Assembly: GCF_025210595.1 (NCBI RefSeq)
Contig: NZ_JAOARH010000099.1
Location: 1-43,256 of the forward strand
Direction: 5' to 3'
Source: Winogradskyella sp.
GTDB taxonomy: Bacteria > Bacteroidota > Bacteroidia > Flavobacteriales > Flavobacteriaceae
DNA: 43,256 nt
Shown: piece by piece, positions 10,907-35,300 of the stretch
Layout of the letters: every line of letters starts with the position of its first letter
Position numbering within the stretch: position 1 is the first letter of the stretch
The notes under the pieces: model-generated
Databases searched by the model: none
Told to the model about the DNA's origin: nothing
What the model saw: only the letters and a program-made list of their open reading frames with translations
Position numbers and translations under genes: made by a program

Positions 10907-10936
10907 GTCAAACGACCATTTACTGTCGACAAACTG
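10907..10936 (-). promoter_or_regulatory. LytTR-type direct-repeat element upstream of lruC (weak copy, site E)
   Basis: Read on the minus strand: CAGTTTGTC, 12-bp spacer GACAGTAAATGG, then TCGTTTGAC. The upstream half, with its flanking base, gives ACAGTTTGT, a full match to the published LytTR half-site pattern [TA][AC][CA]GTTN[AG][TG]. The downstream half is degenerate (5 of 9 to the local consensus). The spacer shares GACA with site C. A TAATTTTA (10847-10854), one base off TAnnTTTG, lies downstream, but its spacing is 53 bp rather than the 33 bp seen at the best sites. Confidence 0.5.
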
Positions 10937-11007
10937 TAAAACAACCCAAAGAAAAACAAGCTAAATCACTGAAAAACAGATTAAAGACTAACTTTTAAAA
11001 TCATTAC

Positions 11008-11448
11008 CTATGCTATTTTTTCCAAGTATTCTTGAACTGAAAAAAGATTCTTCAAAAAAGCTGATTTAACGACTTTATTTTCTTTCTCTACTTTAATTAA
11101 GGAAACTATTGTTTCTTGATGTTGCATGTAATCTTTTAAAACTTCTAATATTTTTAAATCATCTAGACCAACAATAAACCCTAAATGCTTTAGATTAAAT
11201 TTATTTTGCATAAATCTTGCACCAGCTCTAACAGAAGATGTGTTAGATTTTTTTCTTTTTGTATTTACAACATTTGCATTATTGCATTGTTCTGCAATTT
11301 CTGTAAGAATTTCAAAATCCTTATCACTACTGCTATTGCATACTAAACAGATTTCAACATCTGCAATTGCATTAATAGATGCTACAAAAAAGTCTTTGAG
11401 TGCTTCGTTTTCAAAACTATTAAATACTATAATAAGACCTCTGTACAT
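11008..11448 (-). CDS. Small GT-A-like protein of the EPS operon, function unknown
   Basis: 146 residues. It begins MYRGLIIVFNS and alternates beta strands and helices as in the N-terminal nucleotide-binding half of a family 2 glycosyltransferase. It shows VEICLVCNSSSDKDFEIL and KRKKSNTSSVRAGARFM, resembling the segment before the DxD in GT2 enzymes. It ends shortly after LGFIVGLDDL with no QxxRW and no membrane segment, so it is far shorter than an active GT2. It is the last gene of the leftward EPS operon, 37 bp after the preceding GT2. A GT remnant or an accessory subunit is possible. Confidence 0.55.
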   Translation of the reverse strand: MYRGLIIVFNSFENEALKDFFVASINAIADVEICLVCNSSSDKDFEILTEIAEQCNNANVVNTKRKKSNTSSVRAGARFMQNKFNLKHLGFIVGLDDLKILEVLKDYMQHQETIVSLIKVEKENKVVKSAFLKNLFSVQEYLEKIA

Positions 11449-11485
11449 AATTTAAGTTATTTTCTAGGGGTTTAAGATTTTATAA

Positions 11486-12676
11486 CTAAACAGCTCTTTT
11501 TGCGCGTTCCCAATTAACCGATTGGCTATTGTTTATATATCTAAAAAATCCGAGTACCACTGACAGGTTCATAATGAAAAAATAGTAGGGTACAAAAAGC
11601 ACTTTCACCTTGAGTGATTTATTTTCTAATATCCAACCTAAGCCTGCAGCAACGTAAAACAGAACTTGTAGCCAGAATAACGTTGAATACAAACCAAATT
11701 CAAAAAACCCTTCATTATAGGCTAAAATTCCTGAGACAGGTATTAATAATATTAAACATAAAGGTGTTAATGTCCATCTTAATACACGATGTGAGATATA
11801 TTGAAAAGATAATACACCATACTTAAAGATGTTCATTAAAGATCTCATACGGACAACAGATTGAATTCCTCCTGCCGATATTCTAATCTTACGCTTTAAT
11901 TCTTCTCCAACATTTGCTGAAGCAGTCTCTATGGCGTAAGCCTCTGGATTATACTGTATTGTATACCCTTTTTTAGCAACTCTAAGTGAGATAATAAAGT
12001 CATCTAATAACGTATCTGGCTCTACTTCATTATACAACTCAGTTCTTATTGCAAATAGTTCACCTGCTGCACCAACTGCCGAATACAACTCTGCGTCCCA
12101 TTTTTTTAATGTAGATTCATATCTCCAATACAAACCTTCCCCAGCACCAGCAGCTGCATCTGCTTCTTTATTAATTATACGTTTTTCACCAGAAACGCAT
12201 CCAACTTTTGGATCCATAAAACAATTAACAATATGCATTATAGAATCTTCTCCTAAATTTGTATTAGCATCACTAAAAACAACTATAGGTGTATCTACAA
12301 ATGGCATAACTCTATTCATGGCATTAATTTTCCCCTTACGTTCATCTTTATGATAAACACCAACACCTTCAAATTGTTCGATTAATTTATTGGTACCATC
12401 ATTAGATCCATCAGTAACCCAAGCAATCTTTAATTTATCCTTTGGATAATTTAAACTCAAAGAATTTTCGATTTTTTGTTTTACAAATTCTTTTTCATTA
12501 TAAGCAGGAATTAATAATGTAACCTCTGGCAATTCTGTATCATTACTTATTGCTTTAGGTTTTTTCTTTAAAAAACGCTTTATTTTCACCATTGCATACA
12601 ATACAATACCATAACCTATATAGGTATAAAATATGATGAAAAGTAGGATCCAAAAGGTTAATTCTAATGTTGTCAT
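11486..12676 (-). CDS. Membrane-bound family 2 glycosyltransferase
   Basis: 396 residues. One N-terminal membrane helix (about 6-28) precedes a GT2 catalytic domain. Visible motifs are VTLLIPAYNEKEFV (nucleotide binding), VTDGSNDGT, VVFSDANTNLG (the DxD-type metal site, here SDAN), TLLDDFIISLRV (the ED-like acceptor motif) and KRKIRISAGGIQS in place of QxxRW. Three to four membrane helices close the protein (about 300-385). This is the layout of processive or lipid-linked-acceptor GT2 enzymes working at the inner membrane. It lies within the EPS operon, 33 bp after the preceding GT. Donor and acceptor sugars cannot be read from the sequence. Confidence 0.88.
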   Translation of the reverse strand: MTTLELTFWILLFIIFYTYIGYGIVLYAMVKIKRFLKKKPKAISNDTELPEVTLLIPAYNEKEFVKQKIENSLSLNYPKDKLKIAWVTDGSNDGTNKLIEQFEGVGVYHKDERKGKINAMNRVMPFVDTPIVVFSDANTNLGEDSIMHIVNCFMDPKVGCVSGEKRIINKEADAAAGAGEGLYWRYESTLKKWDAELYSAVGAAGELFAIRTELYNEVEPDTLLDDFIISLRVAKKGYTIQYNPEAYAIETASANVGEELKRKIRISAGGIQSVVRMRSLMNIFKYGVLSFQYISHRVLRWTLTPLCLILLIPVSGILAYNEGFFEFGLYSTLFWLQVLFYVAAGLGWILENKSLKVKVLFVPYYFFIMNLSVVLGFFRYINNSQSVNWERAKRAV

Positions 12677-12709
12677 AAGTATTCTTTTTTTAGGGGCAGT
12701 TATTTTTAA

Positions 12710-13891
12710 TTATTGAACAAATTGATTTAAATATGAACTAAATAATTCGGCTCTTTTATCCCAAGAATTAGACTTGGCAAAATCAATTCGTTCTTTTATT
12801 AAATTTTCTGAGTCATTGTTTATCTGGTATTTAATCTGTTTTACAAATTCTTCTTTGGTATTTGTAACACTTGCTATATTTTTAAAATCATTTAAAACTG
12901 CGAATTGAGTCATTATTACTGGCACTCCTATAGCTAAGTATTCATTAATCTTAAGAGGGTAAATGTTTTTATTTATTTCTGATTTTACATAAGGAATTAT
13001 ACCAACATCAAACTTCGACACTATTTGAGGTACTATAGAAGCATGGACTGCAGAATTAAACACAACATTTTTATACTTAGACAAACTGTCTACTACCTTT
13101 TGATTAAGTACTCCTCCTGTGAATTCGAATATCACGTCTGGTAATTCTTGTACTGCATATTCTACAAGCTCTATATCAAAACGATAATCTAGAGAGCCTG
13201 TGTAACCAACTTTCTTAACTTTATTTTGATTAACTGTAGTTCTTGAGAATGGCTTAAACAACTCATAATCCACACCATTTTTTACAACATAAGACTTAGA
13301 ATTAAGTTGTTTTTTTTCATCATTTAAATAGTCTGATGTAGTAATAATACCATCTACCAACTTACAAAATTCTTTTTCTCTATTAATTGTTTCTTGATTA
13401 TTACGGTTTAAATCCATACCATCGTAACAGTAATAAATATTTTTATCTTCATTTAATTCTCCTATTAGAGCTAAACCATACACAGGGTTAAAAGCAGTAA
13501 TAACTATAGGGTTTTGAAGGTTATATTGCTTTTGAATTTTTAACAGTTCTTTTTTATAAATATTTGTATTCCAATTATATAATCTGGTTAATAAACTCTC
13601 ATTCTTTATCGAAGCTGTTGGCAATACTGCTGGCATTACCACATGCTTTATTTTAGCACCAGTATCAGCCACAATAGTCTTAACACGTTTTTCAAACCCA
13701 AGCATTCTTGATACAGGAATTTTTTCATTACCAAAAATCCCTTTAGACAAATCTTTGATTGTTCTTGGATATTCTATAAACACAACATTATTATTTAATG
13801 CTAGTAAGGACAATAACTTAACCGTACTTTTTGTATACTCACCCTCCCAAGTGGTATACGAAATACAGATTATGTTTCTTCCTTTAATCAT
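12710..13891 (-). CDS. GT4-like (GT-B) glycosyltransferase
   Basis: 393 residues with no membrane segment. It opens GRNIICISYTTWEGEYTKST, the N-terminal Rossmann half. The C-terminal half starts VKKVGYTGSLDYRFDIELV and ends with the donor-binding stretch YPLKINEYLAIGVPVIMT, where a Glu in KINEYL aligns with the conserved GT-B acidic residue. It is clearly a paralogue of the next protein (13912-15129), which has YPRKIDEYLAMGKPIVAT at the same place. It probably adds one sugar of the repeat unit on the cytoplasmic side. Specificity is unknown. Confidence 0.85.
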   Translation of the reverse strand: MIKGRNIICISYTTWEGEYTKSTVKLLSLLALNNNVVFIEYPRTIKDLSKGIFGNEKIPVSRMLGFEKRVKTIVADTGAKIKHVVMPAVLPTASIKNESLLTRLYNWNTNIYKKELLKIQKQYNLQNPIVITAFNPVYGLALIGELNEDKNIYYCYDGMDLNRNNQETINREKEFCKLVDGIITTSDYLNDEKKQLNSKSYVVKNGVDYELFKPFSRTTVNQNKVKKVGYTGSLDYRFDIELVEYAVQELPDVIFEFTGGVLNQKVVDSLSKYKNVVFNSAVHASIVPQIVSKFDVGIIPYVKSEINKNIYPLKINEYLAIGVPVIMTQFAVLNDFKNIASVTNTKEEFVKQIKYQINNDSENLIKERIDFAKSNSWDKRAELFSSYLNQFVQ

Positions 13892-13911
13892 AATAATTAT
13901 CTAGTTTAATA

Positions 13912-16292: not shown

Positions 16293-16297
16293 AATTT

Positions 16298-17503: not shown

Positions 17504-17526
17504 AATGTAACTTTTAATCGTTTGTT

Positions 17527-18459: not shown

Positions 18460-18475
18460 AACTGTAGGTTTTTAA

Positions 18476-19975: not shown

Positions 19976-19991
19976 TTTCTTATAATTTTTC

Positions 19992-21365: not shown

Positions 21366-21367
21366 AA

Positions 21368-23756: not shown

Positions 23757-24491
23757 CTATTTTATAGTTATACCTGTTAAATTTTCAAGCAGTTGTTTAG
23801 ACAACATAAATGCAGATTTGGCTTGTTCGTACTCTGCCTCAATCCTTGCTGTGATATCAAAAAGTCTCACATATTCATAAATAGGAATTAATCCATTTTT
23901 ATATTCTTTTTCTGCCATTTCCATACTAACTTTTGCATTACCAAAATTTTTGGCTTTTAGCTCTAGCAAGTTTTGTTTTAGAAGTAAATCTTCATAGTAT
24001 TTTATAACAGTTTCTTTTATCTCATTTTTTTGAAACTTAACATAATTTTCGGCTTGTGAAATCTCTGCTTGAGCCTGCTTAACATCTGCTTTACGATGGA
24101 GAATATCGAATACTGGTATTTTTAAGAAAAACCCAACACTATAATTTAACTGCGTTGTTGTACTAGCTAAATTTACAGTATTGCCGCCTGTATCATTAGT
24201 TGAAACGTTATTAAAAGTACCATAACGTGAATCTGCAGCAATTCCAAAGTTTCTTGTCCAATTACGTCTTTTTGACTTAAGATTTGATTTCTTAACTTCA
24301 ATTTGATCTTTTCTATACCCTAGCAAACCATTATTGGCCCATGCAGAATCAATTAAAACCTCTAGTTTAGGAATTATCAACCTGAAAGATTCAGGTTCTT
24401 TAGAGCTCACTATTGAATCTTGAGCATTTACAATAGTATTTACAAATAAGGCAACAAGTAGCAGCGCTAATGTTTTGAGAGAGTTTTTCAT
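23757..24491 (-). CDS. Half-length TolC-like outer-membrane channel protein
   Basis: 244 residues from ATG 24491; an in-frame TTG at 24515 is less likely because the ATG starts a clean signal peptide ending VNAQ. The mature part has one TolC/OEP repeat. SVGFFLKIPVFDILHRKADVKQAQAEI is the beta-hairpin and helix entry. A long helix pair follows with NEIKETVIKYYEDLL and EMAEKEYKNGLIPIYEYVRL, ending LLENLTGI. Ordinary TolC proteins carry two such repeats in 400 or more residues, so this one would need a higher oligomer or a partner. It is the first gene of the EPS operon, 13 bp before the Wzc-like gene. No Wza-type exporter is in the window, so it may be the outer-membrane exit. Confidence 0.8.
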   Translation of the reverse strand: MKNSLKTLALLLVALFVNTIVNAQDSIVSSKEPESFRLIIPKLEVLIDSAWANNGLLGYRKDQIEVKKSNLKSKRRNWTRNFGIAADSRYGTFNNVSTNDTGGNTVNLASTTTQLNYSVGFFLKIPVFDILHRKADVKQAQAEISQAENYVKFQKNEIKETVIKYYEDLLLKQNLLELKAKNFGNAKVSMEMAEKEYKNGLIPIYEYVRLFDITARIEAEYEQAKSAFMLSKQLLENLTGITIK

Positions 24492-24524
24492 GACTTGGGG
24501 GCTATTGAATAACAATTCTTATTA

Positions 24525-24532
24525 CTAAATTA
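24525..24532 (-). promoter_or_regulatory. Probable -7 element of the EPS operon
   Basis: Minus-strand TAATTTAG, one base from TAnnTTTG, 33 bp downstream of site A and about 33 bp before the ATG. The spacing equals that at the ugd promoter. Confidence 0.5.
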
Positions 24533-24564
24533 CAACTACATTAGAGCGAATTCTTATATATTTC

Positions 24565-24594
24565 GACGGACAACCAATAACTGTAGACGAATAG
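24565..24594 (-). promoter_or_regulatory. LytTR-type direct-repeat element upstream of the EPS operon (site A)
   Basis: Read on the minus strand: CTATTCGTC, spacer TACAGTTATTGG, then TTGTCCGTC. The two 9-bp halves start 21 bp apart, two helical turns, as in AgrA/ComE-class LytTR operators. The spacer shares TACA-TTAT with site B. It lies 74-103 bp upstream of the first EPS gene, with the -7 element 33 bp away. Confidence 0.7.
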
Positions 24595-24647
24595 ATGTTA
24601 TTTACAGTTAAAGAAAATCAGTATAATATACCTATTATAAACATTAA

Positions 24648-24680
24648 AGGCTGCCTACTCAAATAAAGAGATGGCAGCCT
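24648..24680 (-). terminator. Probable terminator of the ugd-uxs-RR-sugar transferase operon
   Basis: AGGCTGCC (24648-24655) and GGCAGCCT (24673-24680) pair perfectly, and an inner CTC/GAG extends the stem. It sits 25 bp after the stop of the sugar transferase gene and before site A, so it separates the two leftward operons. The T tract after the stem is only moderate. Confidence 0.7.
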
Positions 24681-24704
24681 AAAAAAAACTTAACCTATTT
24701 TTTT

Positions 24705-25892
24705 TTAAACTGTACTTTTTTGAAATAACGCAGGAATAGTTCTGAGCAAAATATTTATATCAAACCAAAACGAATAATTATTATCAACAAAGTAATTAGC
24801 ATATTTATTATCTAAAGCTACGCGCTCTTCTTCAGACATTTCTCCGCCTTTTCCTCTTAGCTCTACTTGCCATAATCCTGTTATACCTGCAGGAGCCAAG
24901 AATCGTTTTGATAATTGATCTTTTGTTAACAATTCTGCTTCATATACTGGTAATGGACGGTTTCCTACCAATGACATATCACCTTTTATAACATTGATAA
25001 GTTGAGGCAACTCGTCTATACTAGTGTTTCTTATAAATTTACCAACTCTTGTAATCCTAGGATCATCTACAATTTTAATAAAACTAGAATTGCTATCTAA
25101 AGCTCTTTGTTTTTGCTTATTATACCAATAGTCGCAAATTTTTCCTTGCTCCGTGTATTTTACAGGAGAACAATATTCACCAGCATATATCTTGGCACAC
25201 CTAGGACAACTTTCATTCTCATTTACTTGAGTTTCTTCTTGAGAATTATTGTACTGGTTTTTTTCTTTAGCCAATTGCTTTAACATCTTATCTGAACCTG
25301 TACGCATTGATCGAAGTTTATAAAAGTCGAATGTTTTACGGCCAACACGTTTTGCTATATAATACACCTTTCCTTTTGACTCTAGTCTTATCGCAAGAAT
25401 AATTATTAATAATAATGGAGATAACACTAATAAAATTGATGATGCCACAACAACATCAAAAATTCTTTTTGATAAAGGAAATTTATAAGCTGCCGACTTT
25501 GGACCAGTTATGTTATTTGAATTTTTACTTTTTTGATTTTTACAAAGTTTTGTTGCTCTTAAAATAATTTGCTCAGCATCTGTTGAGTCAATTACAAAAT
25601 AATCACCTACACCTTTATCAAAAGCCTCTTTATAAACTTTACCACTATGCTCTTGCATGAGTAATATAAATGGTAAATCAGCTATATTTTTGTTCTCTTT
25701 TAAATTATCGTAAAAAAACAACCCATTATTACCAGGCAGATTATATTCGCATAGAATAATATCTATATCATCTTGAGCCTTTAAAGCATTTAAAGCCTCA
25801 ACACTATTTTCACAAAATACAGCAGTTATTTCAGTATCCTCAATACTCCACTCTATATCGTCGGTATGCTTTCCAATGTATAATAATTTCAT
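24705..25892 (-). CDS. Initiating sugar transferase with N-terminal pseudo-receiver domain and Cys-rich insertion
   Basis: 395 residues. About 1-118 is a response-regulator receiver fold (IDIILCEYNLPGNNGL). The phospho-acceptor Asp is Glu49, the N-terminal acidic pair is displaced, and no KP follows, so it should not be phosphorylated. From about 138 it is a bacterial sugar transferase of the WbaP/WcaJ C-terminal type: a membrane segment (145-168), RVGRKTFDFYKLRSM, IDELPQLINVIKGDMSLVGNRPL and ITGLWQV. Between these motifs an insertion (about 205-265) carries four Cys, C229-P-R-C232, C241 and C253, a possible zinc site. Known function of the family: transfer of sugar-1-phosphate to undecaprenyl phosphate, the first EPS step. 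It is last in the ugd operon. Confidence 0.87.
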   Translation of the reverse strand: MKLLYIGKHTDDIEWSIEDTEITAVFCENSVEALNALKAQDDIDIILCEYNLPGNNGLFFYDNLKENKNIADLPFILLMQEHSGKVYKEAFDKGVGDYFVIDSTDAEQIILRATKLCKNQKSKNSNNITGPKSAAYKFPLSKRIFDVVVASSILLVLSPLLLIIILAIRLESKGKVYYIAKRVGRKTFDFYKLRSMRTGSDKMLKQLAKEKNQYNNSQEETQVNENESCPRCAKIYAGEYCSPVKYTEQGKICDYWYNKQKQRALDSNSSFIKIVDDPRITRVGKFIRNTSIDELPQLINVIKGDMSLVGNRPLPVYEAELLTKDQLSKRFLAPAGITGLWQVELRGKGGEMSEEERVALDNKYANYFVDNNYSFWFDINILLRTIPALFQKSTV

Positions 25893-25932
25893 TAGTAAAT
25901 AGATATTAATTTGTTATAAAAAAACTATGTAC

Positions 25933-26319
25933 CTACCAAACATTTGCGTAATGAATTGGGTATAAGTTTTTCTTCACTACTTCATCTAATTCTTCTGGAT
26001 TAAACGGCTTAGTTAAGTAATCTTGAGCACCTAGTTTATACGATTTTATACGCTCTTTACTTTCTGCATTACCAGATAACATTATAATTGGAGTATGCTT
26101 TGTATAACCTCTTTGCCTAATGTTTTGCAAAAGCGTAAAGCCATTCATATTATCCATTTGTATATCACTGATTATTAAATCTGGCAAATTACTATCGAGC
26201 CAAGCTTCTGCTTCTACTCCTGAGTTAACAGCCGTTACATCATATTTGTTTGATAAGAAAAACTCCAGAAGAGTTGTCATTGTTAACTCGTCATCAATTA
26301 CTAATATCTTTTTTTTCAT
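25933..26319 (-). CDS. Stand-alone CheY-like response regulator
   Basis: 128 residues, receiver domain only. All key residues are present: the acidic pair in LVIDDE, phospho-acceptor Asp52 in IISDIQMDNMNG, Ser in IIMLSGN and the Lys of YLTKPFNPEEL. No output domain follows. It lies between uxs (22 bp upstream) and the pseudo-receiver sugar transferase (40 bp downstream), so it should be made with the sugar-nucleotide enzymes. It may be a phosphorelay intermediate for the HPt at 29771 or may act on a protein partner of the EPS machinery. Both are inference. Confidence 0.9.
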   Translation of the reverse strand: MKKKILVIDDELTMTTLLEFFLSNKYDVTAVNSGVEAEAWLDSNLPDLIISDIQMDNMNGFTLLQNIRQRGYTKHTPIIMLSGNAESKERIKSYKLGAQDYLTKPFNPEELDEVVKKNLYPIHYANVW

Positions 26320-26341
26320 AACTGTGAATTTTAAACTTATA

Positions 26342-27283: not shown

Positions 27284-27322
27284 GGTTGTTAGGGGCTATT
27301 AAGTTGCGTATACTTTTATGTT

Positions 27323-28687
27323 TTATACCAATTGAGTTTTTAAATCGACCTTATCTAGGTCTCGTTTTTTAGTACCAATACCTATACAATCATATTCATA
27401 TCCCATTGCAAGCATTTCATCTTTTTCATAAATATTTCTTCCATCAAAAACAACAGGACTATTCAATAAACGCTTCATTATTTTAAAGTTTGGCACTTTA
27501 AATTCTGACCATTCTGTTAATACAGCCAAACAATCTGCTTCTATCAATGCTTCATACTGATCTTCACAATAAGTAATTGTATCACCAAAATGATGCTTTG
27601 CTTCTTCAATAGCCACAGGATCATAAGATTTAACTTTTGCACCAGCATCTAACAACTCTTTAATGATTTGTAAAGATGGTGCTTCTCTCATATCATCTGT
27701 TTGTGGCTTAAAAGATAATCCCCAAATTGCTATGGTTTTATCTTTTAAATCCCCTTTAAAATAGGAGTTGATTTTATTAAACAGCACTAATTTTTGAACT
27801 TTGTTTACAGACTCAACTGCTTTAAGTACTTTAAGTTCGTACTTATTTTCATCAGCTGTTTTTATTAAAGCTTGTACATCTTTTGGAAAACAAGACCCTC
27901 CATATCCTATACCTGGATAAATAAATTTTTGTCCTATTCTAGAATCTGAACCTATCCCTTTTCTAACATTATTAATATTTGCACCAACTATTTCACAGAG
28001 GTTTGCAATATCGTTAATAAAGCTAATCTTAGTTGCTAGCATTGAATTTGCAGCATACTTAGTCATTTCAGCAGAAACAATATCCATAAAAATAATTGGA
28101 TGCCCATTTAGCGTAAATGGCTTGTACAACTTTTTAAGCAGATTTTCTGCTCTCTCGCCTTCTGCACCAACAACAATACGATCTGGTTTCATAAAATCAT
28201 CAATTGCAGCTCCTTCTTTTAAAAACTCTGGGTTTGAAGCTACATCGAAAGGTATATCTAATTTTCTTTTTCTTAACTCTTCTTTTACGGCGTTTCTTAC
28301 TTTTTCTGAAGTCCCAACAGGAACCGTACTCTTTGTAACGATTAGCTTGTAATCGTTCATATGCTTACCACACTCTCTTGCTACCGCAAGCACATGCTTA
28401 AGATCTGCACTACCATCTTCATCTGGCGGAGTTCCTACACTTATGAAAACAGCTTCTGATTCTGATAATGTATCAGCAAGGCTAGTTGAAAAACTTAAAC
28501 GTCCTTTAAACATATTACGCTTAATCATGCTTTCCAATCCTGGTTCGTAAATTGGTATGATACCGTTTTTTAAATTTTCGATTTTTTGCTCGTCAATGTC
28601 TACACAAACAACATCGATTCCTACTTCGGAAAAACACGCACCTGTTACTAAACCTACGTAACCACTTCCTACTATTGCTATTTTCAT
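27323..28687 (-). CDS. ugd: UDP-glucose 6-dehydrogenase
   Basis: 454 residues, full length for the family. The N-terminal NAD-binding domain starts KIAIVGSGYVGLVTGACFSEVG. TKSTVPVGTSEKV and NPEFLKEGAAIDDFMKPDRIVVG are family blocks. The catalytic Cys266 lies in GIGYGGSCFPKDVQAL. The C-terminal UDP-binding domain has IWGLSFKPQTDDMREAPS and VFDGRNIY. Reaction: UDP-glucose plus 2 NAD+ to UDP-glucuronate. It is first in an operon with uxs, a receiver gene and the initiating sugar transferase. Its promoter carries the LytTR-type repeat (site B) and a perfect -7 element. Confidence 0.96.
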   Translation of the reverse strand: MKIAIVGSGYVGLVTGACFSEVGIDVVCVDIDEQKIENLKNGIIPIYEPGLESMIKRNMFKGRLSFSTSLADTLSESEAVFISVGTPPDEDGSADLKHVLAVARECGKHMNDYKLIVTKSTVPVGTSEKVRNAVKEELRKRKLDIPFDVASNPEFLKEGAAIDDFMKPDRIVVGAEGERAENLLKKLYKPFTLNGHPIIFMDIVSAEMTKYAANSMLATKISFINDIANLCEIVGANINNVRKGIGSDSRIGQKFIYPGIGYGGSCFPKDVQALIKTADENKYELKVLKAVESVNKVQKLVLFNKINSYFKGDLKDKTIAIWGLSFKPQTDDMREAPSLQIIKELLDAGAKVKSYDPVAIEEAKHHFGDTITYCEDQYEALIEADCLAVLTEWSEFKVPNFKIMKRLLNSPVVFDGRNIYEKDEMLAMGYEYDCIGIGTKKRDLDKVDLKTQLV

Positions 28688-28715
28688 AATTAAAAGATTT
28701 GGGGTTTGTTTCTTA

Positions 28716-28723
28716 CAAACTTA
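28716..28723 (-). promoter_or_regulatory. -7 element of the ugd operon
   Basis: Minus-strand TAAGTTTG, a perfect TAnnTTTG, about 29 bp before the ugd ATG and 33 bp downstream of site B. No TTG stands at the usual -33 spacing, consistent with dependence on an activator. Confidence 0.65.
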
Positions 28724-28755
28724 ACGTTGAAAAACGTATTTCATCGATAAATTTC

Positions 28756-28785
28756 GACGAATAAACGATAAGTGTAGACTAATGG
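28756..28785 (-). promoter_or_regulatory. LytTR-type direct-repeat element upstream of ugd (site B)
   Basis: Read on the minus strand: CCATTAGTC, spacer TACACTTATCGT, then TTATTCGTC, with starts 21 bp apart. The hexamer TTATCG also recurs three times at exact 21-bp steps through the element (plus-strand CGATAA at 28745, 28766 and 28787), giving a ladder of half-sites phased at about 10.5 bp. Confidence 0.75.
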
Positions 28786-28921
28786 GCGATAACAAATGGT
28801 AATTGTCTTTTGCTTTATGAGAAACCAAGTTACAGTAAAAAATTCAACAAACTACTGCTCACACATTTATAGATTTTATCGTTTTAAACCACTTAAAATA
28901 TTAACCTTAAATAAATGAAAA

Positions 28922-28959
28922 AAAAATAAGGCTGTATTATTCTATTCTGAGCATACAAC
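28922..28959 (-). terminator. Possible terminator of the signalling operon
   Basis: On the minus strand GTTGTAT pairs with ATACAGC (7 bp including one G-T) around a 15-base loop, followed after a short gap by a run of nine T. It lies about 90 bp after the LytTR regulator stop. The stem is weak. Confidence 0.35.
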
Positions 28960-29046
28960 AAAAGGAATAATTACAAGTTATATGATGTTATTTTGGTTAA
29001 CGGAAACTTATTTAATTTCAACTAGAAACCACGAACAAGAAGACTT

Positions 29047-29760
29047 TTAAAGCAAGTTTAATCGCTTCATTAATTCAGGTCGATTAGAGCGACTTACAGG
29101 AACAACATCTTTCTTTATCAATACACTATTATCTTCAATATCAATAATTTTATCTACATTGATAATATAAGAGCGATGGATTTTTAAGAACAGACTGTCT
29201 GGTAATTTTTCTTCTATTTTTTTAAGTGTAGAGTGTACGGTGTAGTTTTTATCTTCGGTTTTAATAAGAATGTAGTCTCCTTTTGCTTCTACTAAATAAA
29301 CACTTGAGATATCAATTTTTATTAACCGTCTATCTATATTTACATATAAATCATTACCAGAAATAGTTTCCACATTTTCTGACGAGGTCATATTAGCAGG
29401 AGCAGATACAGGTGATAATTCTGCTTTATGAATTGCTTTTTGAAAACGCTCTAATACAATTGGTTTTACTAGGTAATCTACAATACAATCATATTCAAAA
29501 GCTTGAATAGCAAAATTAGCATCTGATGTTGTTAAGACTATTTTAGGAGGGTTTTTTATGGTTTCTATAAAGTCGAAACCTGTAAAATCTGGCATGTGAA
29601 TATCTAGAAAGATAAGATCTACCTCATTTTGATTTAAATACTTAATCGCTTGAATTGCATTAGGAAATTCTTCCAAAACATTTACACTATCAATATTACT
29701 ACATAACTGGCTAATTATAGCTCTTGCAGTAGCTTCATCATCAATAATAATACAATTCAT
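29047..29760 (-). CDS. LytTR-family response regulator (REC-LytTR)
   Basis: 237 residues. The receiver (about 1-115) has the acidic pair in CIIIDDEA, phospho-acceptor Asp53 in LIFLDIHMPDFTGF, Thr77 in VLTTSD and Lys99 in YLVKPI. A 20-residue linker leads to a LytTR DNA-binding domain (138-235): DLYVNIDRRLIKI, YLVEAKGDYILIKT, FLKIHRSYIINVDKI and VPVSRSNRPELMKRL. LytTR proteins bind pairs of 9-bp direct repeats spaced by about 12 bp. Elements of exactly that form lie upstream of this operon, the ugd operon and the EPS operon, so this is the leading candidate for their regulator (inferred). It is the last gene of the operon, 10 bp after the HPt gene. Confidence 0.93.
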   Translation of the reverse strand: MNCIIIDDEATARAIISQLCSNIDSVNVLEEFPNAIQAIKYLNQNEVDLIFLDIHMPDFTGFDFIETIKNPPKIVLTTSDANFAIQAFEYDCIVDYLVKPIVLERFQKAIHKAELSPVSAPANMTSSENVETISGNDLYVNIDRRLIKIDISSVYLVEAKGDYILIKTEDKNYTVHSTLKKIEEKLPDSLFLKIHRSYIINVDKIIDIEDNSVLIKKDVVPVSRSNRPELMKRLNLL

Positions 29761-29770
29761 AGATGTAGGA

Positions 29771-30088
29771 TTAAATGGTCTCTAAAAAATCTGTCATGAT
29801 TTGCAGAGTGTTTTCAAAATCTACTTTACCCTCTGTGCTGTTTTCCGTGAGGTTATTCTCATAATATGCAGCAGCATCATAACTTTTTGTGAGCCCTAAA
29901 ATACTAATTTTATGTTTAATTTTATGTACGTTTTCAGCTGCTTTCTTAAAATTTTTTGCATTTATATTATTAAAATAAACTGCTTTCTCTTCAGGAAATT
30001 CTTGTTTAATAATGTCTATAAGTTTTTTCTCAAAGGCTTTATCACCTCCAGACATACTCTCTATGTATGATAAATTAGGCTGATCCAT
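29771..30088 (-). CDS. Stand-alone histidine phosphotransfer (HPt) protein
   Basis: 105 residues, all helical. The HPt signature is AENVHKIKHKISILGL, with phospho-accepting His55 and the conserved Lys58 four-helix-bundle pattern. Upstream it has SGGDKAFEKKLIDIIKQEF, the usual first helix. It overlaps the end of the kinase gene at 30075 by 14 bp and precedes the LytTR regulator gene by 10 bp. In a phosphorelay it would carry phosphate between a stand-alone receiver and the LytTR regulator. The order is inferred. Confidence 0.88.
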   Translation of the reverse strand: MDQPNLSYIESMSGGDKAFEKKLIDIIKQEFPEEKAVYFNNINAKNFKKAAENVHKIKHKISILGLTKSYDAAAYYENNLTENSTEGKVDFENTLQIMTDFLETI

Positions 30089-31139
30089 CTTGTTTTTTTA
30101 ATAATGTGAAGAAAAAAGTAGTACCTTCATTAGCCTTTGAAGTTATCCAAATTTCTCCACCATAAACTTCTACTATTTTTTTTACTATTGCTAGACCAAT
30201 ACCTGTAGAATCCACACTATTCTCTAGCTTTTCGAAGGTGTTGAATATTTTATTATGATATTTTTCTTCAATACCTATTCCATTATCCCTTACATAGAAC
30301 TCCCAAAACTTGTTTTTATCTTTAACACCTATTTCTACTAGAGCTTGTTCTTTATCATTATACTTTATTGCATTAACGATTAAATTTTGAAACAACTGTG
30401 TTAAACGGCTTTTATCTCCATAAATATTAGGTAAATCGTCTACTATAATCTTATTTTTCCCTGTTAATTGTATTGCTGTTTTTATTTCATCAATAAGATT
30501 ATTTAAATCTACTTCATAGAGCTCAATCTCACTTTTTGCTATGGTAGAATATTGAAGTATTCCATTGATAAGAGCGTCCATCTTTTCTACATTTGCTCGC
30601 AATAAATCTAACTGTTTATTACTTTGTTTATCCAATCTTTCTCTATTATCTTCTACCAACCAAGTCGTTAATGTATCTATATTACGTAATGGCGATTTTA
30701 AATCGTGCGAGACCATGTGCGCATAATCACTCAATTCTTGGTTTTGATAAGCTAGCTCTTCTAAAAGAGCTTCTCTTTGCTTATTTATTTCTAAAATTTC
30801 TTTGGTTTGGTTGTCTATAAAATCTACCAATTTTAAACCATCTAAATCAATAACACTAGTATCTTGATGCTGTGGTAAGTTATAAAACTTAAGAGTTTCT
30901 ATTACATGCTTTAATTTATTGATAACCTCTTTTTGTGCTTTTGCTTCACTCCTTAATTGTTGATTTGCATTAAACAATTCTTCTGAACTAATAGTCATTG
31001 CTCTTTGTAACATTACTAACTGTTCGTCATAATTTGTATAAGACCAAGCAACCGCATCTAAAAAAGGTACTAAATCTTTATTAGTTTTTAAATCTTCTGT
31101 AAGATGTTTTCGTATTTGACGCTTTAAGAGAGAATTCAT
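30075..31139 (-). CDS. Sensor histidine kinase next to the FIST protein (NahK-like)
   Basis: 354 residues, with no membrane segment and no PAS domain recognised. The N-terminal 90 residues are helical (LVPFLDAVAWSYTNYDEQL, then QLRSEAKAQKEVINKL). HisKA follows with His145 in MVSHDLKSPLRNIDTL. The HATPase domain has LFQNLIVNAIKYND (N box), VRDNGIGIE (G1) and STGIGLAIVKKIVE (G2). A soluble kinase without its own input domain fits control by a separate protein. The adjacent upstream FIST gene ends where this starts (31139), so the FIST protein is the likely input, as for NosP/NahK pairs. Confidence 0.9.
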   Translation of the reverse strand: MNSLLKRQIRKHLTEDLKTNKDLVPFLDAVAWSYTNYDEQLVMLQRAMTISSEELFNANQQLRSEAKAQKEVINKLKHVIETLKFYNLPQHQDTSVIDLDGLKLVDFIDNQTKEILEINKQREALLEELAYQNQELSDYAHMVSHDLKSPLRNIDTLTTWLVEDNRERLDKQSNKQLDLLRANVEKMDALINGILQYSTIAKSEIELYEVDLNNLIDEIKTAIQLTGKNKIIVDDLPNIYGDKSRLTQLFQNLIVNAIKYNDKEQALVEIGVKDKNKFWEFYVRDNGIGIEEKYHNKIFNTFEKLENSVDSTGIGLAIVKKIVEVYGGEIWITSKANEGTTFFFTLLKKQDGSA

Positions 31140-32269
31140 TATTCACTAATTAAAGTTATAGTCATTGTCTGATTATGAAGTTGACAATTTATTTCTAAAT
31201 TAAATGGCGCTATCTCACCATAAGAGTAAAACCCACACACTGTTGTATCTTCACCTACTATAGACACAACTTCCTCTATCTCTTCTTCTACACGTTGATC
31301 TAAGACTAGTTTTCTACCTATACAACTAACCAATAAAGCTAATTGAGGTTTGGTTTTTCTTTTTTCAAGAGCTTGTTTGGCAGCCAACTCTGATGCATTT
31401 GCAATATTATCTACATTTGTCATCATTAACTGAACTCTAGATTTTTCTGGAATATCACCAGCTAAAATCATGGTATTGTTATCATCATCTATGTTTAGTA
31501 TAGTACGAACATAGGATTGTTCTTCACCTTCTGACTTTACATCTAAAGGATATAGTAAAGCTGCACTAGGAAGGTCTTTTGCTTTTTCACCCAAATAAGA
31601 TTTATATAAATCTAACGCAGGCTTACCATCTAACTCATGTAGAATATTCCCCTCAGATTTAGTAACAATACGTTCTGGCCCAAAAGGTGTCCAACCACCA
31701 TGTATAGCAAAAGATGCTTCAAATGTGTCTCCATAAAAACCTATAGCTACAATCTCACCTGGTTTTGGATTTTCATTATATGCGGCTACTGTTTTTTCAA
31801 AACGTGCTGCATCACCACAAAGACCTCCTGTTATTAACAACTCTTGATCTATTGCATTGTTCATTCCTTTTGTTAACTCACTTCCATTAATAAAGCTACC
31901 TTCAGATATAACAAAAATATGCTTTAAACCTTTTTTAGAGAATTGATTTACTAAATCTTTACCTGTCTGGAAACTATCTAAGTCTTTATTTAATACGTTG
32001 CTTGTTTTTATTTCAAAAGAACTTCTCTCAAACTCTATAGCAGTTACAGTTATACACTCATCATCAACATAACCTGCAGTAATGTCCCCACTTGTAGAAC
32101 CAAAAACGATATGACCATCTGGAAATTTCTCTCTTATCTCATCATATATAACACCATTCTCTAGAAGGTACCTATTACCAAACACTAATACTAATGGTTG
32201 CTTTAAAACTATATCTCTAGATAGATATTTCCATTTTGCATTATTTTTTGTTAGCTGTACTGTTTTCAT
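31139..32269 (-). CDS. FIST-domain sensor protein (NosP-like)
   Basis: 376 residues, soluble. FIST_N (about 28-220) has PLVLVFGNRYLLENG, HIVFGSTSGDITAGYV and ITGGLCGDAARFEKTVA. FIST_C (about 220-355) has GKPALDLYKSYLGEKAKDLPSAALLYPL and ends with TTVCGFYSYGEIAPF, the GFYTYGE-like block typical of the family. Some FIST proteins (NosP) bind haem and sense nitric oxide, then regulate a cognate kinase encoded alongside. The flanking kinases and the H-NOX gene two places upstream support that reading here. Haem binding cannot be shown from sequence, since the ligand residue is not a fixed motif. Its stop shares a base with the kinase start. Confidence 0.85.
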   Translation of the reverse strand: MKTVQLTKNNAKWKYLSRDIVLKQPLVLVFGNRYLLENGVIYDEIREKFPDGHIVFGSTSGDITAGYVDDECITVTAIEFERSSFEIKTSNVLNKDLDSFQTGKDLVNQFSKKGLKHIFVISEGSFINGSELTKGMNNAIDQELLITGGLCGDAARFEKTVAAYNENPKPGEIVAIGFYGDTFEASFAIHGGWTPFGPERIVTKSEGNILHELDGKPALDLYKSYLGEKAKDLPSAALLYPLDVKSEGEEQSYVRTILNIDDDNNTMILAGDIPEKSRVQLMMTNVDNIANASELAAKQALEKRKTKPQLALLVSCIGRKLVLDQRVEEEIEEVVSIVGEDTTVCGFYSYGEIAPFNLEINCQLHNQTMTITLISE

Positions 32270-32271
32270 TA

Positions 32272-33861
32272 TTATTTTTTTAGAGTAAAGTAAAATGTTG
32301 TTGTCTCACCTGGAGTACTATCTAACCATATTTTGCCATTGTGCATATTAACAATTTTCTTAACTAAAGATAATCCTATACCTGTAGAGTCTTTTCGCTT
32401 GTTTAATGAATGAAATATTTTAAATATTTTTTCATGAAACTTAGGCTCTATTCCAATGCCATTGTCTTTTATAGAAAATTTATAGTATCGGTCTTCATCT
32501 TCAACATTAATTTCTATTAACCCTTTTTCTTTATCATTAAATTTTACAGCGTTACTAATTAGATTTAGAAACACTTGCTGTAACTTAGTCTTATCACCTT
32601 TAACTGTAGGTAAAGCATTATGAGTGATTACCTCTATATTCTTAGGCACATACATTGTTTGTAGCAAATCATCTACTAAAGCTTGTGTATCTACCTGTAC
32701 TAACTCTTGGTTACTAGATGAAGCGCTAGAATAATCTAAAATATCTGAAATTAGTTGCTCCATTTTCTCCAAGGTTGTCTCTATAAGACCTATATTTTGA
32801 AGACTAACTTCATCTAGTTTATCTTTATTATCTTCTTTTAACCAAGAAACTAATGCATCTATACTTCTTAATGGAGATTTTAAATCATGAGAAACAACAT
32901 GTGCATACTCGTTGAGCTCTTCGTTACTTTTTTCTAATTTTTGTAGTAATTTTTCTTTCTGTAATTCTAAATTTTTAAGTTCAGTAATATCTAAATGAAT
33001 TCCTATTGAACCAACAATATTACCTTGTAAGTCATAATTAGGTGCACCACTGATTAACCAGTATTTTATCTCACCTGTTTTACTTTTAACTTTAAGCTCA
33101 TAAGAGCTTAATTCTCCATTCTGACGCTTCTCATTTTCTTTTTTTATGATAGCGTTATTTTCTTCGGCTCTAAAAACTATACCAACATCTTTGCCTATTA
33201 ATTCTTCTTCGTCATATTCTGACATTTCTTGAAAGCGTTGGTTAACCATCAAAATTTCGTCATTATTATTCACCTCTACCAAACCAAGATTCATGTTTGC
33301 AATAATGCTGCCATATTTTTGCTTTTCGGCAACTAATGCTTGTTGGTATTTATTTTCTAAAGTAATGTCTCTAACAATACCTTGAGCGGCTACTGCAATT
33401 CCATCTTCATAAATTGTACTCGCATTAACATGTACAAACTTTTTTTGATTCTTTTTGGTATTAATAGTGATCTTAAAATCTGTTATGGCACCTTTTACTA
33501 AAAGCTCTCTAAAATATGGTGTAATACGAGGTAAATCTTCTGCAACTACTAATGACATAAGATTAATATCATCATCCTTGTAATTAAACCCTAGTAATTC
33601 TATCGCAGCTTCGTTCATTTTGAGAACATTTCCCCATAAATCTATAATTACATATGCATCAACTATATTTTCAAAAACACCTTGTAATTGTGAGTTTGTT
33701 TTAGAATATAATCTCGCTAGTTCTTTATGAGATGCTTCTAATTCTTGATTAACTTCATATAGTTGAGCAGATTTTGCCTCAAGGATTTCTTCAGCTGCTT
33801 TTCGAGAAGCTTTTTCGCGATCTAACGCTCTTTTAAGGGCGTTTACTTCTTTTTGACTCAT
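32272..33861 (-). CDS. PAS-PAS sensor histidine kinase next to H-NOX (HahK-like)
   Basis: 529 residues, soluble. An N-terminal coiled coil (1-60, LDREKASRKAAEEILEAKSA) is of the kind seen in H-NOX-associated kinases. PAS1 (about 58-170, ending GIVRDITLENKY) and PAS2 (about 183-296, ending IGIHLDITELKNLE) follow. HisKA has His325 in VVSHDLKSPLRSID. The HATPase domain has FLNLISNAVKFND, IKDNGIGIE and STGIGLSLVKKIV. It has no receiver domain of its own. Its start overlaps the H-NOX stop by one base, the classical arrangement in which H-NOX inhibits or activates the kinase on NO binding. It ends 2 bp before the FIST gene. Confidence 0.92.
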   Translation of the reverse strand: MSQKEVNALKRALDREKASRKAAEEILEAKSAQLYEVNQELEASHKELARLYSKTNSQLQGVFENIVDAYVIIDLWGNVLKMNEAAIELLGFNYKDDDINLMSLVVAEDLPRITPYFRELLVKGAITDFKITINTKKNQKKFVHVNASTIYEDGIAVAAQGIVRDITLENKYQQALVAEKQKYGSIIANMNLGLVEVNNNDEILMVNQRFQEMSEYDEEELIGKDVGIVFRAEENNAIIKKENEKRQNGELSSYELKVKSKTGEIKYWLISGAPNYDLQGNIVGSIGIHLDITELKNLELQKEKLLQKLEKSNEELNEYAHVVSHDLKSPLRSIDALVSWLKEDNKDKLDEVSLQNIGLIETTLEKMEQLISDILDYSSASSSNQELVQVDTQALVDDLLQTMYVPKNIEVITHNALPTVKGDKTKLQQVFLNLISNAVKFNDKEKGLIEINVEDEDRYYKFSIKDNGIGIEPKFHEKIFKIFHSLNKRKDSTGIGLSLVKKIVNMHNGKIWLDSTPGETTTFYFTLKK

Positions 33862-34400
33862 TATAACTTGTTGATAAAAAATCGTACTTCAGTACCTTCT
33901 TCGTTTAGTTTTTCGAATTCGATACTGGCAGGCACTTTAAATAATTTAAAAATCTCTAGTATTAAGCCTTTTCCAAGTGTATATAATGCTCTATGTGATT
34001 TATAAACCATAACCATCTTATTATCTGTACGTTCTTCCAAATCAAAAGTAGGTAATTGAGCATCAGGATAAATCTTCTGAACCTCAACATGAATATGGTT
34101 TTCTACTGACACTAATAAATCCATTGGATCATCATAATGATAAACTAAATCGGGATACGATTTAATCAATACGGCAAATAAATGTTCTGCATATGCCATT
34201 AAAAGATCATCCACATTAATATCTGTATTGTGACTTAAATGTGAAATGAGTTGCAACATCTCTGAAAAATCATATGTACCTACAGCGGTATAAATACCGT
34301 TTGAAGCTAAATTAGATTGACCAATGATTTTATTTACCATTATCAACCCATATTTATCTTCAACAAATTCTAAGAATTCTGTAAATATGATACCTTTCAT
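33861..34400 (-). CDS. H-NOX (haem-NO-binding) domain protein
   Basis: 179 residues, the usual length of a stand-alone H-NOX. It starts KGIIFTEFLEFVEDKYGL, the family N-terminus. The haem ligand is predicted to be His104 in NHIHVEVQKIYPDAQLPTF, aligned to His105 of soluble guanylate cyclase beta1. The haem-propionate motif YxSxR is intact as Tyr133, Ser135 and Arg137 in YKSHRAL. It should bind NO through a five-coordinate ferrous haem; oxygen binding is less likely as no obvious distal Tyr motif is seen, though I cannot be sure. The kinase gene overlaps its stop by one base. Confidence 0.93.
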   Translation of the reverse strand: MKGIIFTEFLEFVEDKYGLIMVNKIIGQSNLASNGIYTAVGTYDFSEMLQLISHLSHNTDINVDDLLMAYAEHLFAVLIKSYPDLVYHYDDPMDLLVSVENHIHVEVQKIYPDAQLPTFDLEERTDNKMVMVYKSHRALYTLGKGLILEIFKLFKVPASIEFEKLNEEGTEVRFFINKL

Positions 34401-34810
34401 TAAGCTTTAATTAACTCATTGATGCTCCAATATGCTAATAATTTTTCTATTTTGAAAACATATTCTTCATATTTTAATGGCTTTAATACATAACCTGCTA
34501 TACCAATTTTATAGCACTCTAAAAGATCGCGTTGATTGTTAGAAGTTGTTAAAATTATTGTTGGTATGTATTTTAACCTATCATCTGCTTTCAATATTTT
34601 AAGAAACTCCAAGCCATTTATCTTTGGCATATTTAAATCTAAAAGAATGATATCTGGAAGTTTATCTTTTTGCTCTAACAATTTCAAAGCCTCTTCACCA
34701 TTATTAGCTTCTATAATATTATGACTAAGGTTTAGTGACGATTTAGCTCTACTGAGTTTCATCACTTCTATCATATCATCTTCGATGAGTAAAACGTTTA
34801 GAGTATTCAT
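34400..34810 (-). CDS. Stand-alone response regulator (Rcp1-like), first gene of the signalling operon
   Basis: 136 residues, receiver domain only. Key residues are the acidic cluster in VLLIEDDMIE, Asp58 in IILLDLNMPKINGLEF, Thr in IILTTSN and Lys in YVLKPLKYEEY. The loop and length match Rcp1-type regulators, often partners of soluble kinases without attached receivers. Its stop overlaps the H-NOX start by one base. It could take phosphate from one or both kinases and pass it to the HPt. Two LytTR-type elements lie upstream (sites C and D). Confidence 0.92.
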   Translation of the reverse strand: MNTLNVLLIEDDMIEVMKLSRAKSSLNLSHNIIEANNGEEALKLLEQKDKLPDIILLDLNMPKINGLEFLKILKADDRLKYIPTIILTTSNNQRDLLECYKIGIAGYVLKPLKYEEYVFKIEKLLAYWSINELIKA

Positions 34811-34892
34811 AAGTAAGATTAATTAATTGGTTGCAAGTTACACTAACATCAACTAATTATTTTTTTGTTTAGATTGGGGTTTCTTTGGCGTC

Positions 34893-34922
34893 GTTGATTG
34901 ACGCATAAGTGTCGACGAACGG
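34893..34922 (-). promoter_or_regulatory. LytTR-type direct-repeat element proximal to the signalling operon (site C)
   Basis: Read on the minus strand: CCGTTCGTC, spacer GACACTTATGCG, then TCAATCAAC. The upstream half with flanking base gives ACCGTTCGT, a full match to [TA][AC][CA]GTTN[AG][TG]. The spacer shares ACACTTAT with site B. The downstream half is poor (5 of 9). No perfect -7 is seen at 33 bp. It lies 83 bp before the receiver gene start. Confidence 0.6.
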
Positions 34923-35231
34923 TTTTAAGCCATGAGGCTTTTATCCTACACAACTTAATTTGTTAGTCACTTTTTATGCCATCAACCGTATTTAACGCTT
35001 AAATTTCAACTTTATACGTTAAAATTTTTGGTTCTACACTTTTTCAAGCTTTACCTTTCAAACTCTTAACATTAATGAGTCATGTTAATATTTTAAGAGT
35101 TTTAAGCACTATTTCTTCAGATAATTTTAAGTTTTCCTCAAAAAGAACCAACCACCTATTCAATTCAATATCAACAAACAACAAGTTGTTATGCTATTTT
35201 TATTTTGAAAATTTCGGTTTATCTGATATAA

Positions 35232-35239
35232 CAAATTTA
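35232..35239 (-). promoter_or_regulatory. -7 element of the distal promoter (site D)
   Basis: Minus-strand TAAATTTG, a perfect TAnnTTTG, 32 bp downstream of site D. It points left into non-coding DNA. Confidence 0.6.
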
Positions 35240-35270
35240 AAATCTAACTTGATCTAGAGTGATATTTTTA

Positions 35271-35300
35271 GACGAATAAACATTTGGTAGCGACGAATGG
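35271..35300 (-). promoter_or_regulatory. Best-conserved LytTR-type direct repeat (site D)
   Basis: Read on the minus strand: CCATTCGTC, spacer GCTACCAAATGT, then TTATTCGTC. Seven bases in a row (ATTCGTC) are identical in the two halves, whose starts are 21 bp apart. It lies 32 bp downstream of the MmcQ/YjbR stop, so it cannot serve that gene. It has its own -7 element and is followed by about 400 bp without an ORF. Confidence 0.72.

What the first reader, a model, noticed from the sequence alone, without database searches (positions are those of the whole stretch)
10907..35300. A shared 30-bp direct-repeat operator links EPS, ugd, signalling and lruC operons
Seen: five intergenic elements of form 9 bp, N12, 9 bp with 21-bp phasing: 24565-24594, 28756-28785, 34893-34922, 35271-35300 and weaker 10907-10936. 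Consensus in the transcription sense is CCATTCGTC-N12-TTATTCGTC with a partly conserved spacer (TACAnTTAT). Sites A, B and D have a TAnnTTTG-like element 33, 33 and 32 bp downstream, and none has a clear -33 TTG. Known: LytTR regulators bind such repeats, and the half-sites of C and E fully match the published pattern. Inference: the LytTR protein at 29047 activates all these operons, including its own.
Basis: partly seen in the sequence, partly recalled or inferred. Interest (0 to 1): 0.92.

Follow-up and report, generated by a model that had tools for sequence, protein, structure and literature searches.

The report
Flavobacterial LytTR operator at EPS promoters
Repeated 21-bp DNA boxes in front of a slime-polysaccharide cluster and of a gas-sensor gene operon look like docking sites of the LytTR-type switch protein that this operon encodes, and the arrangement recurs in many Flavobacteriaceae.

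Summary
All five elements are at the stated coordinates, on the minus strand; each is the best remaining hit when left out of the matrix. A model built only from relatives ranks them first to fifth in the window. A 26-position pattern at ≤3 mismatches hits the 3.12-Mb genome four times, at A-D only, control 0. E is weak.

In 80 related loci the element is a tandem array of 21-bp units: 368 hits on the operon strand, 0 on the other; 289 of 299 clusters intergenic. The promoter-proximal unit ends 32/33 bp before TAnnTTTG (≤1 mismatch in 246 of 299 clusters, counting three-unit arrays; 5-13 of 299 at shifted offsets). C, and less clearly E, fit the three-unit form.

The motif tracks the LytTR orthologue: 47 of 61 same-family genomes with it, 1 of 88 without.

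Best explanation: LytTR activator sites that autoregulate an H-NOX/kinase/FIST/Hpt-like/LytTR operon and drive EPS and surface operons. Binding, activation and NO input are inferred. It is a new variant of a known kind (LytTR operators); an NO-to-EPS route without c-di-GMP is the novel reading.

The parts
24565..24594 (-). site A: two-unit operator before the OEP-family gene that opens the Wzc-Wzx-Wzy gene row
24525..24532 (-). -7 box of A, TAATTTAG, 33 bp after the second repeat
28756..28785 (-). site B: two-unit operator before ugd
28716..28723 (-). -7 box of B, TAAGTTTG, 33 bp after the second repeat
34893..34922 (-). site C: operator before the sensor/LytTR operon (autoregulation); 76 of 80 related loci have a site here, the other 4 are held only as short stretches with LytTR near their left end
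34872..34880 (-). degenerate third unit of C (ACCCCAATC, then TAAA)
   Evidence: read by eye in the sequence; unit model
34833..34840 (-). -7-like box of C, TAACTTGC, 53 bp after the second unit; fits TAnnTTGY
   Evidence: SM5 box in PMC9723704
35271..35300 (-). site D: two-unit operator; no intact small gene between it and C in the window
35232..35239 (-). -7 box of D, TAAATTTG, 32 bp after the second repeat
10907..10936 (-). site E: weakest operator, before the LruC-like DUF4842 gene
   Evidence: rank 5 in the genome with E 0.43; not within 3 mismatches
10847..10854 (-). -7-like box of E, TAATTTTA, 53 bp after the second unit
29047..29760 (-). receiver + LytTR response regulator, proposed binder
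   Evidence: Pfam PF00072 3e-18, PF04397 6.1e-21
29771..30088 (-). Hpt-like phosphotransfer protein
   Evidence: Pfam Hpt E 0.0019, 18.9 bits against a cut-off of 24.6
30075..31139 (-). histidine kinase
   Evidence: HisKA 4.2e-8, HATPase_c 9.3e-25
31139..32269 (-). FIST_N + FIST_C protein, the family to which NosP belongs
   Evidence: 7e-43, 3.1e-36
32272..33861 (-). histidine kinase with PAS domains
33861..34400 (-). H-NOX (HNOB) haem-NO-binding domain protein
   Evidence: 6.7e-36
34400..34810 (-). stand-alone receiver, first gene of the operon
   Evidence: 2.7e-21
27323..28687 (-). ugd, UDP-glucose dehydrogenase (target of B)
23757..24515 (-). OEP-family outer membrane gene, start of the EPS gene row (target of A)
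   Evidence: 1.6e-20
8824..10800 (-). LruC-like DUF4842 protein (target of E)

Best explanation
The elements are operators for the LytTR response regulator encoded at 29047-29760. Shown: they are head-to-tail arrays of two or three 21-bp units (about two helical turns), whose promoter-proximal unit ends 32-33 bp upstream of a Bacteroidota -7 box. Inferred: LytTR monomers sit side by side on one face of the DNA, just upstream of where a -33 element would be, and recruit RNA polymerase. Inferred: the protein is switched by a phosphorelay encoded in its own operon (H-NOX, PAS kinase, FIST, second kinase, Hpt-like protein), which site C makes autoregulatory. Output goes to ugd, the EPS assembly/export genes, the LruC-like protein and, in relatives, T9SS-sorted surface proteins, STAS proteins, flippases and glycosyltransferases. 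Inferred and least certain: the signal is nitric oxide, through H-NOX and FIST/NosP-type sensors.
For: Sites real and local. 368 hits on one strand and 0 on the other in 1.57 Mb, reversed matrix 0, ten column-shuffled matrices 0-2 each; 69 of 69 within-cluster steps are 21 bp. 126 of the 129 exact TAnnTTTG at offsets 1-79 lie at 32, 33, 53 or 54. Third-unit signature (C 77%, G 84%, then A 86, 93, 76%) in the 53/54 class (74 clusters), absent from the 32/33 class (172). Co-occurrence 47 of 61 against 1 of 88; 76 of 92 matches within 30 kb, all 76 co-oriented. Site before the sensor operon in 76 of 80 loci. LytTR is the only DNA-binding domain that Pfam shows among the 30 window proteins scanned (other window ORFs were not scanned). 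Matches away from LytTR often precede what look like the same gene families: flippase, STAS, GT, ~866-aa surface protein, LruC-like protein. Known LytTR-regulator operons have repeats 12 bp apart with a strong bias to 10 bp upstream of -35, by my arithmetic about 33 bp from -10 (PMC6193735, passages).
Against: No binding, expression or start-site data. 14 of 61 genomes with the orthologue have no match at 3 mismatches or fewer, and 2 of 18 chosen ones have no R1 match at E 0.01. 16 of 92 matches are not within 30 kb on the same contig; of the 12 of these first read, 3 overlap ORFs as called and 6 have no -7 box within 1 mismatch at the phased offsets. This genome has 14 other LytTR-domain matches (15 in all) that could bind similar DNA. 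E is weak, its third unit is poor by eye, and the boxes of C and E are imperfect. NO sensing rests on domain names and on residues read by eye.
Confidence: 0.8

Rival explanations
1. Same repeats and geometry, but the binder is another regulator (a LytTR paralogue or an unlinked protein), and the linked LytTR is only a neighbour.
For: The genome has 15 LytTR-domain matches, one of them this protein; LytTR sites share an overall layout (PMC4847170, passages).
Against: The motif follows this orthologue (47 of 61 against 1 of 88) while 18 of 18 genomes checked without it still hold 2-18 LytTR domains. A site lies before the operon that ends in LytTR in 76 of 80 loci.
Confidence: 0.12
2. The LytTR protein binds there but as a repressor (like CoxC) or as a dual regulator; EPS genes are switched off when the relay is active.
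For: CoxC, a LytTR regulator with three direct repeats, represses from an operator that overlaps -35 (PMC11347149, passages).
Against: Here the last unit ends 32-33 bp before the -7 box, upstream of the core promoter, and TTG is rare where a -33 box would lie (at most 10 of 299 at any of offsets 10-20, against 92 at offset 38; no formal test). That resembles the activating LRS geometry.
Confidence: 0.12
3. The repeats are part of a transcribed RNA element (leader, attenuator, small RNA).
For: Intergenic and strand-specific.
Against: They lie upstream of the -7 box; Rfam finds nothing in the window at gathering scores; the 21-bp step is a DNA-helix phase.
Confidence: 0.02
4. Chance similarity or shared ancestry of intergenic DNA.
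For: E alone is weak (13.5 bits, genome E 0.43).
Against: Left-out-site ranks, independent model and whole-genome specificity.
Confidence: 0.02

Closest known systems
LytTR Regulatory Systems (LRS: HdrRM, BrsRM), PMC6193735 (passages seen)
   Same: direct repeats mostly 12 bp apart, strong bias to 10 bp upstream of -35 (about 33 bp from -10 by my arithmetic), autoregulation of the regulator's own operon, further sites at target promoters
   Different: LRS pair a LytTR protein with a membrane inhibitor; here it has a receiver domain and closes a kinase/Hpt-like operon; half-site sequence differs; core promoter is the Bacteroidota -7 type; two or three units
RcoM1 / CoxC gas-responsive LytTR regulators, PMC11347149 (passages seen)
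   Same: LytTR domain, three direct repeats at about two-turn spacing, diatomic gas as signal
   Different: Sensors fused to the LytTR domain, CO as signal, TTCNNGCA-like units; CoxC represses; here separate sensors and a phosphorelay are inferred
H-NOX and NosP (FIST) nitric-oxide pathways to biofilm, PMC8738867 (passages and section 10 seen)
   Same: H-NOX beside kinases, FIST near H-NOX in one sequence group; biofilm as output; in V. fischeri H-NOX inhibits a pathway to the syp exopolysaccharide regulon
   Different: Most pathways in the parts seen end in c-di-GMP enzymes or quorum-sensing relays; the term LytTR does not occur in the main text; here both sensor types share one operon with a LytTR output
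F. psychrophilum SM5 promoters (TAnnTTGY), PMC9723704 (section 15 part 1 and passages seen)
   Same: The box of site C, and those of 10 of 79 site-C clusters in relatives, fit TAnnTTGY
   Different: 0 occurrences of LytTR or direct repeat in its main text; sigma usage here untested

Membership tests
LytTR-type operator | two repeats of 9-11 nt separated by 11-13 nt (PMC4847170) | tested here: met
   9-12-9 in all five window sites; 69 of 69 within-cluster steps of 21 bp in relatives
LytTR-type operator | half-site pattern [TA][AC][CA]GTTN[AG][TG] (recalled, Nikolskaya and Galperin 2002; paper not held) | tested here: inconclusive
   Seven of the eight constrained positions fit in 79-100% of 299 clusters, but the fixed G in 7%; 7 of 299 fit fully, 153 of 299 fit all but that G; A is the usual base there. 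PMC4847170 says that LytTR sites share no common consensus
LytTR-type operator | position just upstream of the core promoter | tested here: met
   32/33 bp from last unit to TAnnTTTG, 246 of 299 clusters at ≤1 mismatch when three-unit arrays are counted
LytTR-type operator | a LytTR gene tied to the site | tested here: met
   47 of 61 against 1 of 88 genomes
LytTR-type operator | bound by the LytTR protein | not testable with these tools
   needs EMSA or footprint
LRS (LytTR regulator plus membrane inhibitor) | regulator encoded upstream of an inhibitory membrane protein | tested here: not met
   LytTR carries a receiver domain and closes a seven-gene signalling row; the next gene is ugd
H-NOX NO-signalling system | H-NOX gene beside histidine kinase and response regulator | tested here: met
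   Pfam HNOB 6.7e-36; HNOX within 8 kb upstream of LytTR in 68 of 70 long loci and 24 of 28 divergent ones
H-NOX NO-signalling system | haem ligation and NO response | not testable with these tools
   A His-containing NHIHVEV stretch and YKSHR (YxSxR) are read by eye in the translation; the meaning of these motifs is recalled

The most novel reading that the evidence does not exclude
Flavobacteriaceae run a nitric-oxide-gated, c-di-GMP-independent switch for exopolysaccharide and T9SS surface proteins: H-NOX and FIST/NosP-type sensors feed two kinases and an Hpt-like protein that charge one autoregulated LytTR activator, which acts through phased 2-3-unit operators at promoters with only a -7 box. 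The sensor operon may use an alternative-sigma (TAnnTTGY) box in some genomes and so be timed apart from its targets.
Probability: 0.4. Interest if true: 0.75.

Novelty: new variant of a known kind. Interest (0 to 1): 0.62.

Why it matters
It turns an uncharacterised response regulator into a testable regulon with a defined operator, promoter geometry and target list in dozens of genomes. If NO is the signal, it is a route from gas sensing to surface polysaccharide that ends in direct LytTR transcription control, in a family that is widely distributed in the sea and often found with algae (abstract of PMC7440613 as listed). The operator model also lets EPS and surface-protein targets be proposed from sequence in a genome with the orthologue.

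Tried and rejected
RNA-element reading: Rfam gave 0 matches at gathering scores and the repeats lie upstream of the -7 box; rejected. Extra genome sites: the loose pattern gave 15 hits, 3 of them B, D and A, and 12 others at 3 mismatches, against 20 for its reversed control; so that pattern is uninformative at 3 mismatches. C148:47929 (14.4 bits) has no -7 box that I could see by eye downstream and is left as unproven. G074, the one exact-core match without the orthologue, is a lone half-site (best 10.5 bits) and does not match the 26-position pattern. G031 (R1 E 0.007, no orthologue) has no fitting -7 box (3 mismatches). G049 (no orthologue, one match) lies before a receiver gene near a contig end, so the orthologue may be missing from the assembly; not checked. 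Of the three distal matches that overlap ORFs, one (L160) lies 20 bp inside an ORF start as called and has a perfect box at 54, so the start may be called too early; the other two (L161, L163) look like chance. PMC6769237 (one passage) tells of NO acting on cysteines of AgrA and perhaps of other LytTR proteins; by eye the LytTR domain here (residues 145-234) has no cysteine, so I did not pursue it. PDB look-up of the LytTR protein gave 17 sequences at E ≤ 1e-5, all aligned in the receiver part (residues 1-149). No structure prediction or fold search was run. The motif matrix was refined on the loci it was then scored on, so hit counts are not independent; strand, intergenic position and -7 spacing were not used in building it. 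Loci L016-L095 (the best 80 of 536) were chosen by the LytTR protein, so they cannot show that the motif tracks it; that rests. Homology of distal target genes was judged by eye from translations, apart from the tblastn hits. Literature: nine paper searches combined LytTR or H-NOX with Flavobacteria, Bacteroidetes, biofilm, EPS or repeat terms and the tenth looked for the -7 box; I saw no paper on this operator or this H-NOX-LytTR operon in the listings, but the library lacks most subscription papers, and most listed papers, those among them, were not opened.
Full report
CHECK. Each is recovered by a matrix of the other four as the top remaining hit in the window. A sequence-only model of 34 positions (R1), made from 100 of 243 eligible sites in relatives and none from the window, ranks the five first in the window with a gap (13.5 bits to 7.1). 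In the whole genome (3,122,993 bases, 157 contigs) a 26-position pattern at up to 3 mismatches matches only A, B, C and D (4 matches, reversed control 0). E falls outside that limit, and is supported in the window but not significant genome-wide (E 0.43, behind one hit elsewhere).

ANATOMY. In 80 loci fetched with the LytTR protein (the best 80 of 536; 1.57 Mb) the refined matrix gives 368 hits above 14 bits on the strand of the LytTR operon and none on the other; reversed matrix 0, ten column-shuffled matrices 0-2. They form 299 clusters, 230 with one hit and 69 with two; the step inside a cluster is 21 bp in 69 of 69. ORFs cover 91% of the DNA, yet 289 of 299 clusters are intergenic, and the next gene is on the same strand in 280 of 285. 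TAnnTTTG occurs 129 times at offsets 1-79 after the last unit, 126 of them at 32, 33, 53 or 54. With one mismatch allowed, 246 of 299 clusters have it at these offsets, against 5-13 of 299 when the offsets are moved by 5-12 bp either way. The 53/54 class (74 clusters) has a degenerate extra unit in the gap that the 32/33 class (172) lacks. So the rule is: two or three 21-bp units, the last ending 32-33 bp before the -7 box; 53 of 299 clusters do not fit it at one mismatch. In the window A, B and D are two-unit sites (33, 33, 32), and C and E have their box-like sequence one unit further (53). By eye the third unit of C is fair and that of E poor.

GENES. The LytTR protein closes a tight row: receiver, H-NOX, PAS kinase, FIST, kinase, Hpt-like protein, LytTR. 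Site C precedes it. In relatives a site precedes the receiver gene in 76 of 80 loci; the other four are stretches of 5.8-10.7 kb in which LytTR starts at base 1,526-2,686. In 70 long loci the receiver, kinase and Hpt-like genes are found within 8 kb upstream of LytTR in 70, H-NOX in 68, PAS kinase in 56, FIST in 46; in 28 divergent long loci the numbers are 26, 26, 26, 24, 19 and 8. Other clusters precede a STAS gene (40 clusters in 39 loci), ugd (6 clusters), OEP (4), Wzy (3), Wzc (2) and 148 genes without a window homologue, among which those read include glycosyltransferases, T9SS-sorted proteins and a CAP-domain protein.

WHICH REGULATOR. Among 149 same-family genomes, 61 hold the orthologue at E ≤ 1e-75. 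The 26-position pattern occurs in 48, of which 47 hold the orthologue; the reversed control gives 1 match in the 149. Of 92 matches, 76 lie within 30 kb of LytTR, all in its orientation; Fisher p 6e-25 (genomes are related, so p is a guide). A stricter exact core gave 22 of 23, reversed control 0. R1 at E ≤ 0.01 found matches in 16 of 18 chosen genomes with and 1 of 18 without the orthologue; of the 37 matches in the former, 33 lie near LytTR and 4 far away. The 18 without it hold 2-18 other LytTR domains each. Among 30 fetched loci with LytTR at 55-73% identity, 25 have an operon-strand hit above 20 bits; two of these also have an opposite-strand hit above 20 bits. Matches away from LytTR are informative. 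In G100, a single contig, two sites 2.3 Mb from LytTR precede a flippase-like and a glycosyltransferase gene that also follow sites in other loci. In G144, G138 and G147, where LytTR is on another contig and the true distance unknown, sites precede STAS-like, flippase-like or glycosyltransferase genes. In G002 and G138 a site precedes the ~866-aa surface protein, and in G051 (second half-site and box poor) an LruC-like protein like the one behind site E; these likenesses are by eye. Against: of the 12 distal matches first read, 3 overlap ORFs as called and 6 lack a box within one mismatch at the phased offsets.

MECHANISM. Repeat length and spacing are as in LytTR sites (PMC4847170, passages). 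LRS operons carry repeats mostly 12 bp apart with a strong bias to 10 bp upstream of -35 (PMC6193735, passages); adding a 6-bp -35 and a spacer of about 17 bp gives about 33 bp to -10, the distance found here to the -7 box. That box spans -12 to -5 in F. psychrophilum (PMC9723704, section 15 part 1), so the last unit would end near -44. I infer activation, with positive autoregulation through C. The input is inferred from domains: H-NOX and NosP, a FIST protein, are NO sensors that act on kinases (PMC8738867, passages and section 10). The sign of NO's effect on EPS cannot be told from sequence.

A DIFFERENCE BETWEEN C AND THE REST. The box of C fits TAnnTTGY, not TAnnTTTG. In relatives ten exact TAnnTTGY lie at 32/33, all ten before the receiver gene; twelve others are scattered over offsets 1-79 and none lies at 53, the offset in the window. 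Most site-C clusters (69 of 79) have no exact TAnnTTGY there. In F. psychrophilum TAnnTTGY marks promoters most likely under an alternative sigma factor. The sensor operon may thus use another sigma than its targets in some genomes; this is a lead only.

VERDICT. Nothing here shows binding or NO response.

Noticed in passing
window 34923-35270: Site D and its perfect -7 box are kept although the small ORF family (93-132 aa where read, motif LKHLEFI..FEMYL; 3 members scanned, no Pfam hit over a cut-off) that lies there in 23 of 80 relatives is absent from the window.
   Followed up: partly
window 24705-25892: A receiver domain is fused to a bacterial sugar transferase (Response_reg 1.6e-7, Bac_transf 7.1e-53 in one 395-aa protein), next to a stand-alone receiver (25933-26319): the relay might also touch the first step of EPS assembly directly.
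   Followed up: no
window 7832-8122 and 8516-8794: Two STAS-domain proteins follow the LruC-like gene behind site E; in 39 of 80 relatives a STAS2 homologue is the next gene after an operator, so site E may serve a LruC-STAS-STAS unit.
   Followed up: partly
window 34833-34840: TAnnTTGY box at the autoregulatory promoter, also at 10 of 79 site-C clusters in relatives, against TAnnTTTG-type boxes at most other sites.
   Followed up: partly
L154:4471-5561: In G118 two sites precede two tandem ORFs of 141 and 145 codons that look alike, 1.2 Mb from LytTR, with -7 boxes at 33 (0 and 1 mismatch).
   Followed up: no
L123 (G131:C1:1376298-1378238): This genome has two adjacent LytTR orthologues (72% and 70% identity).
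   Followed up: no
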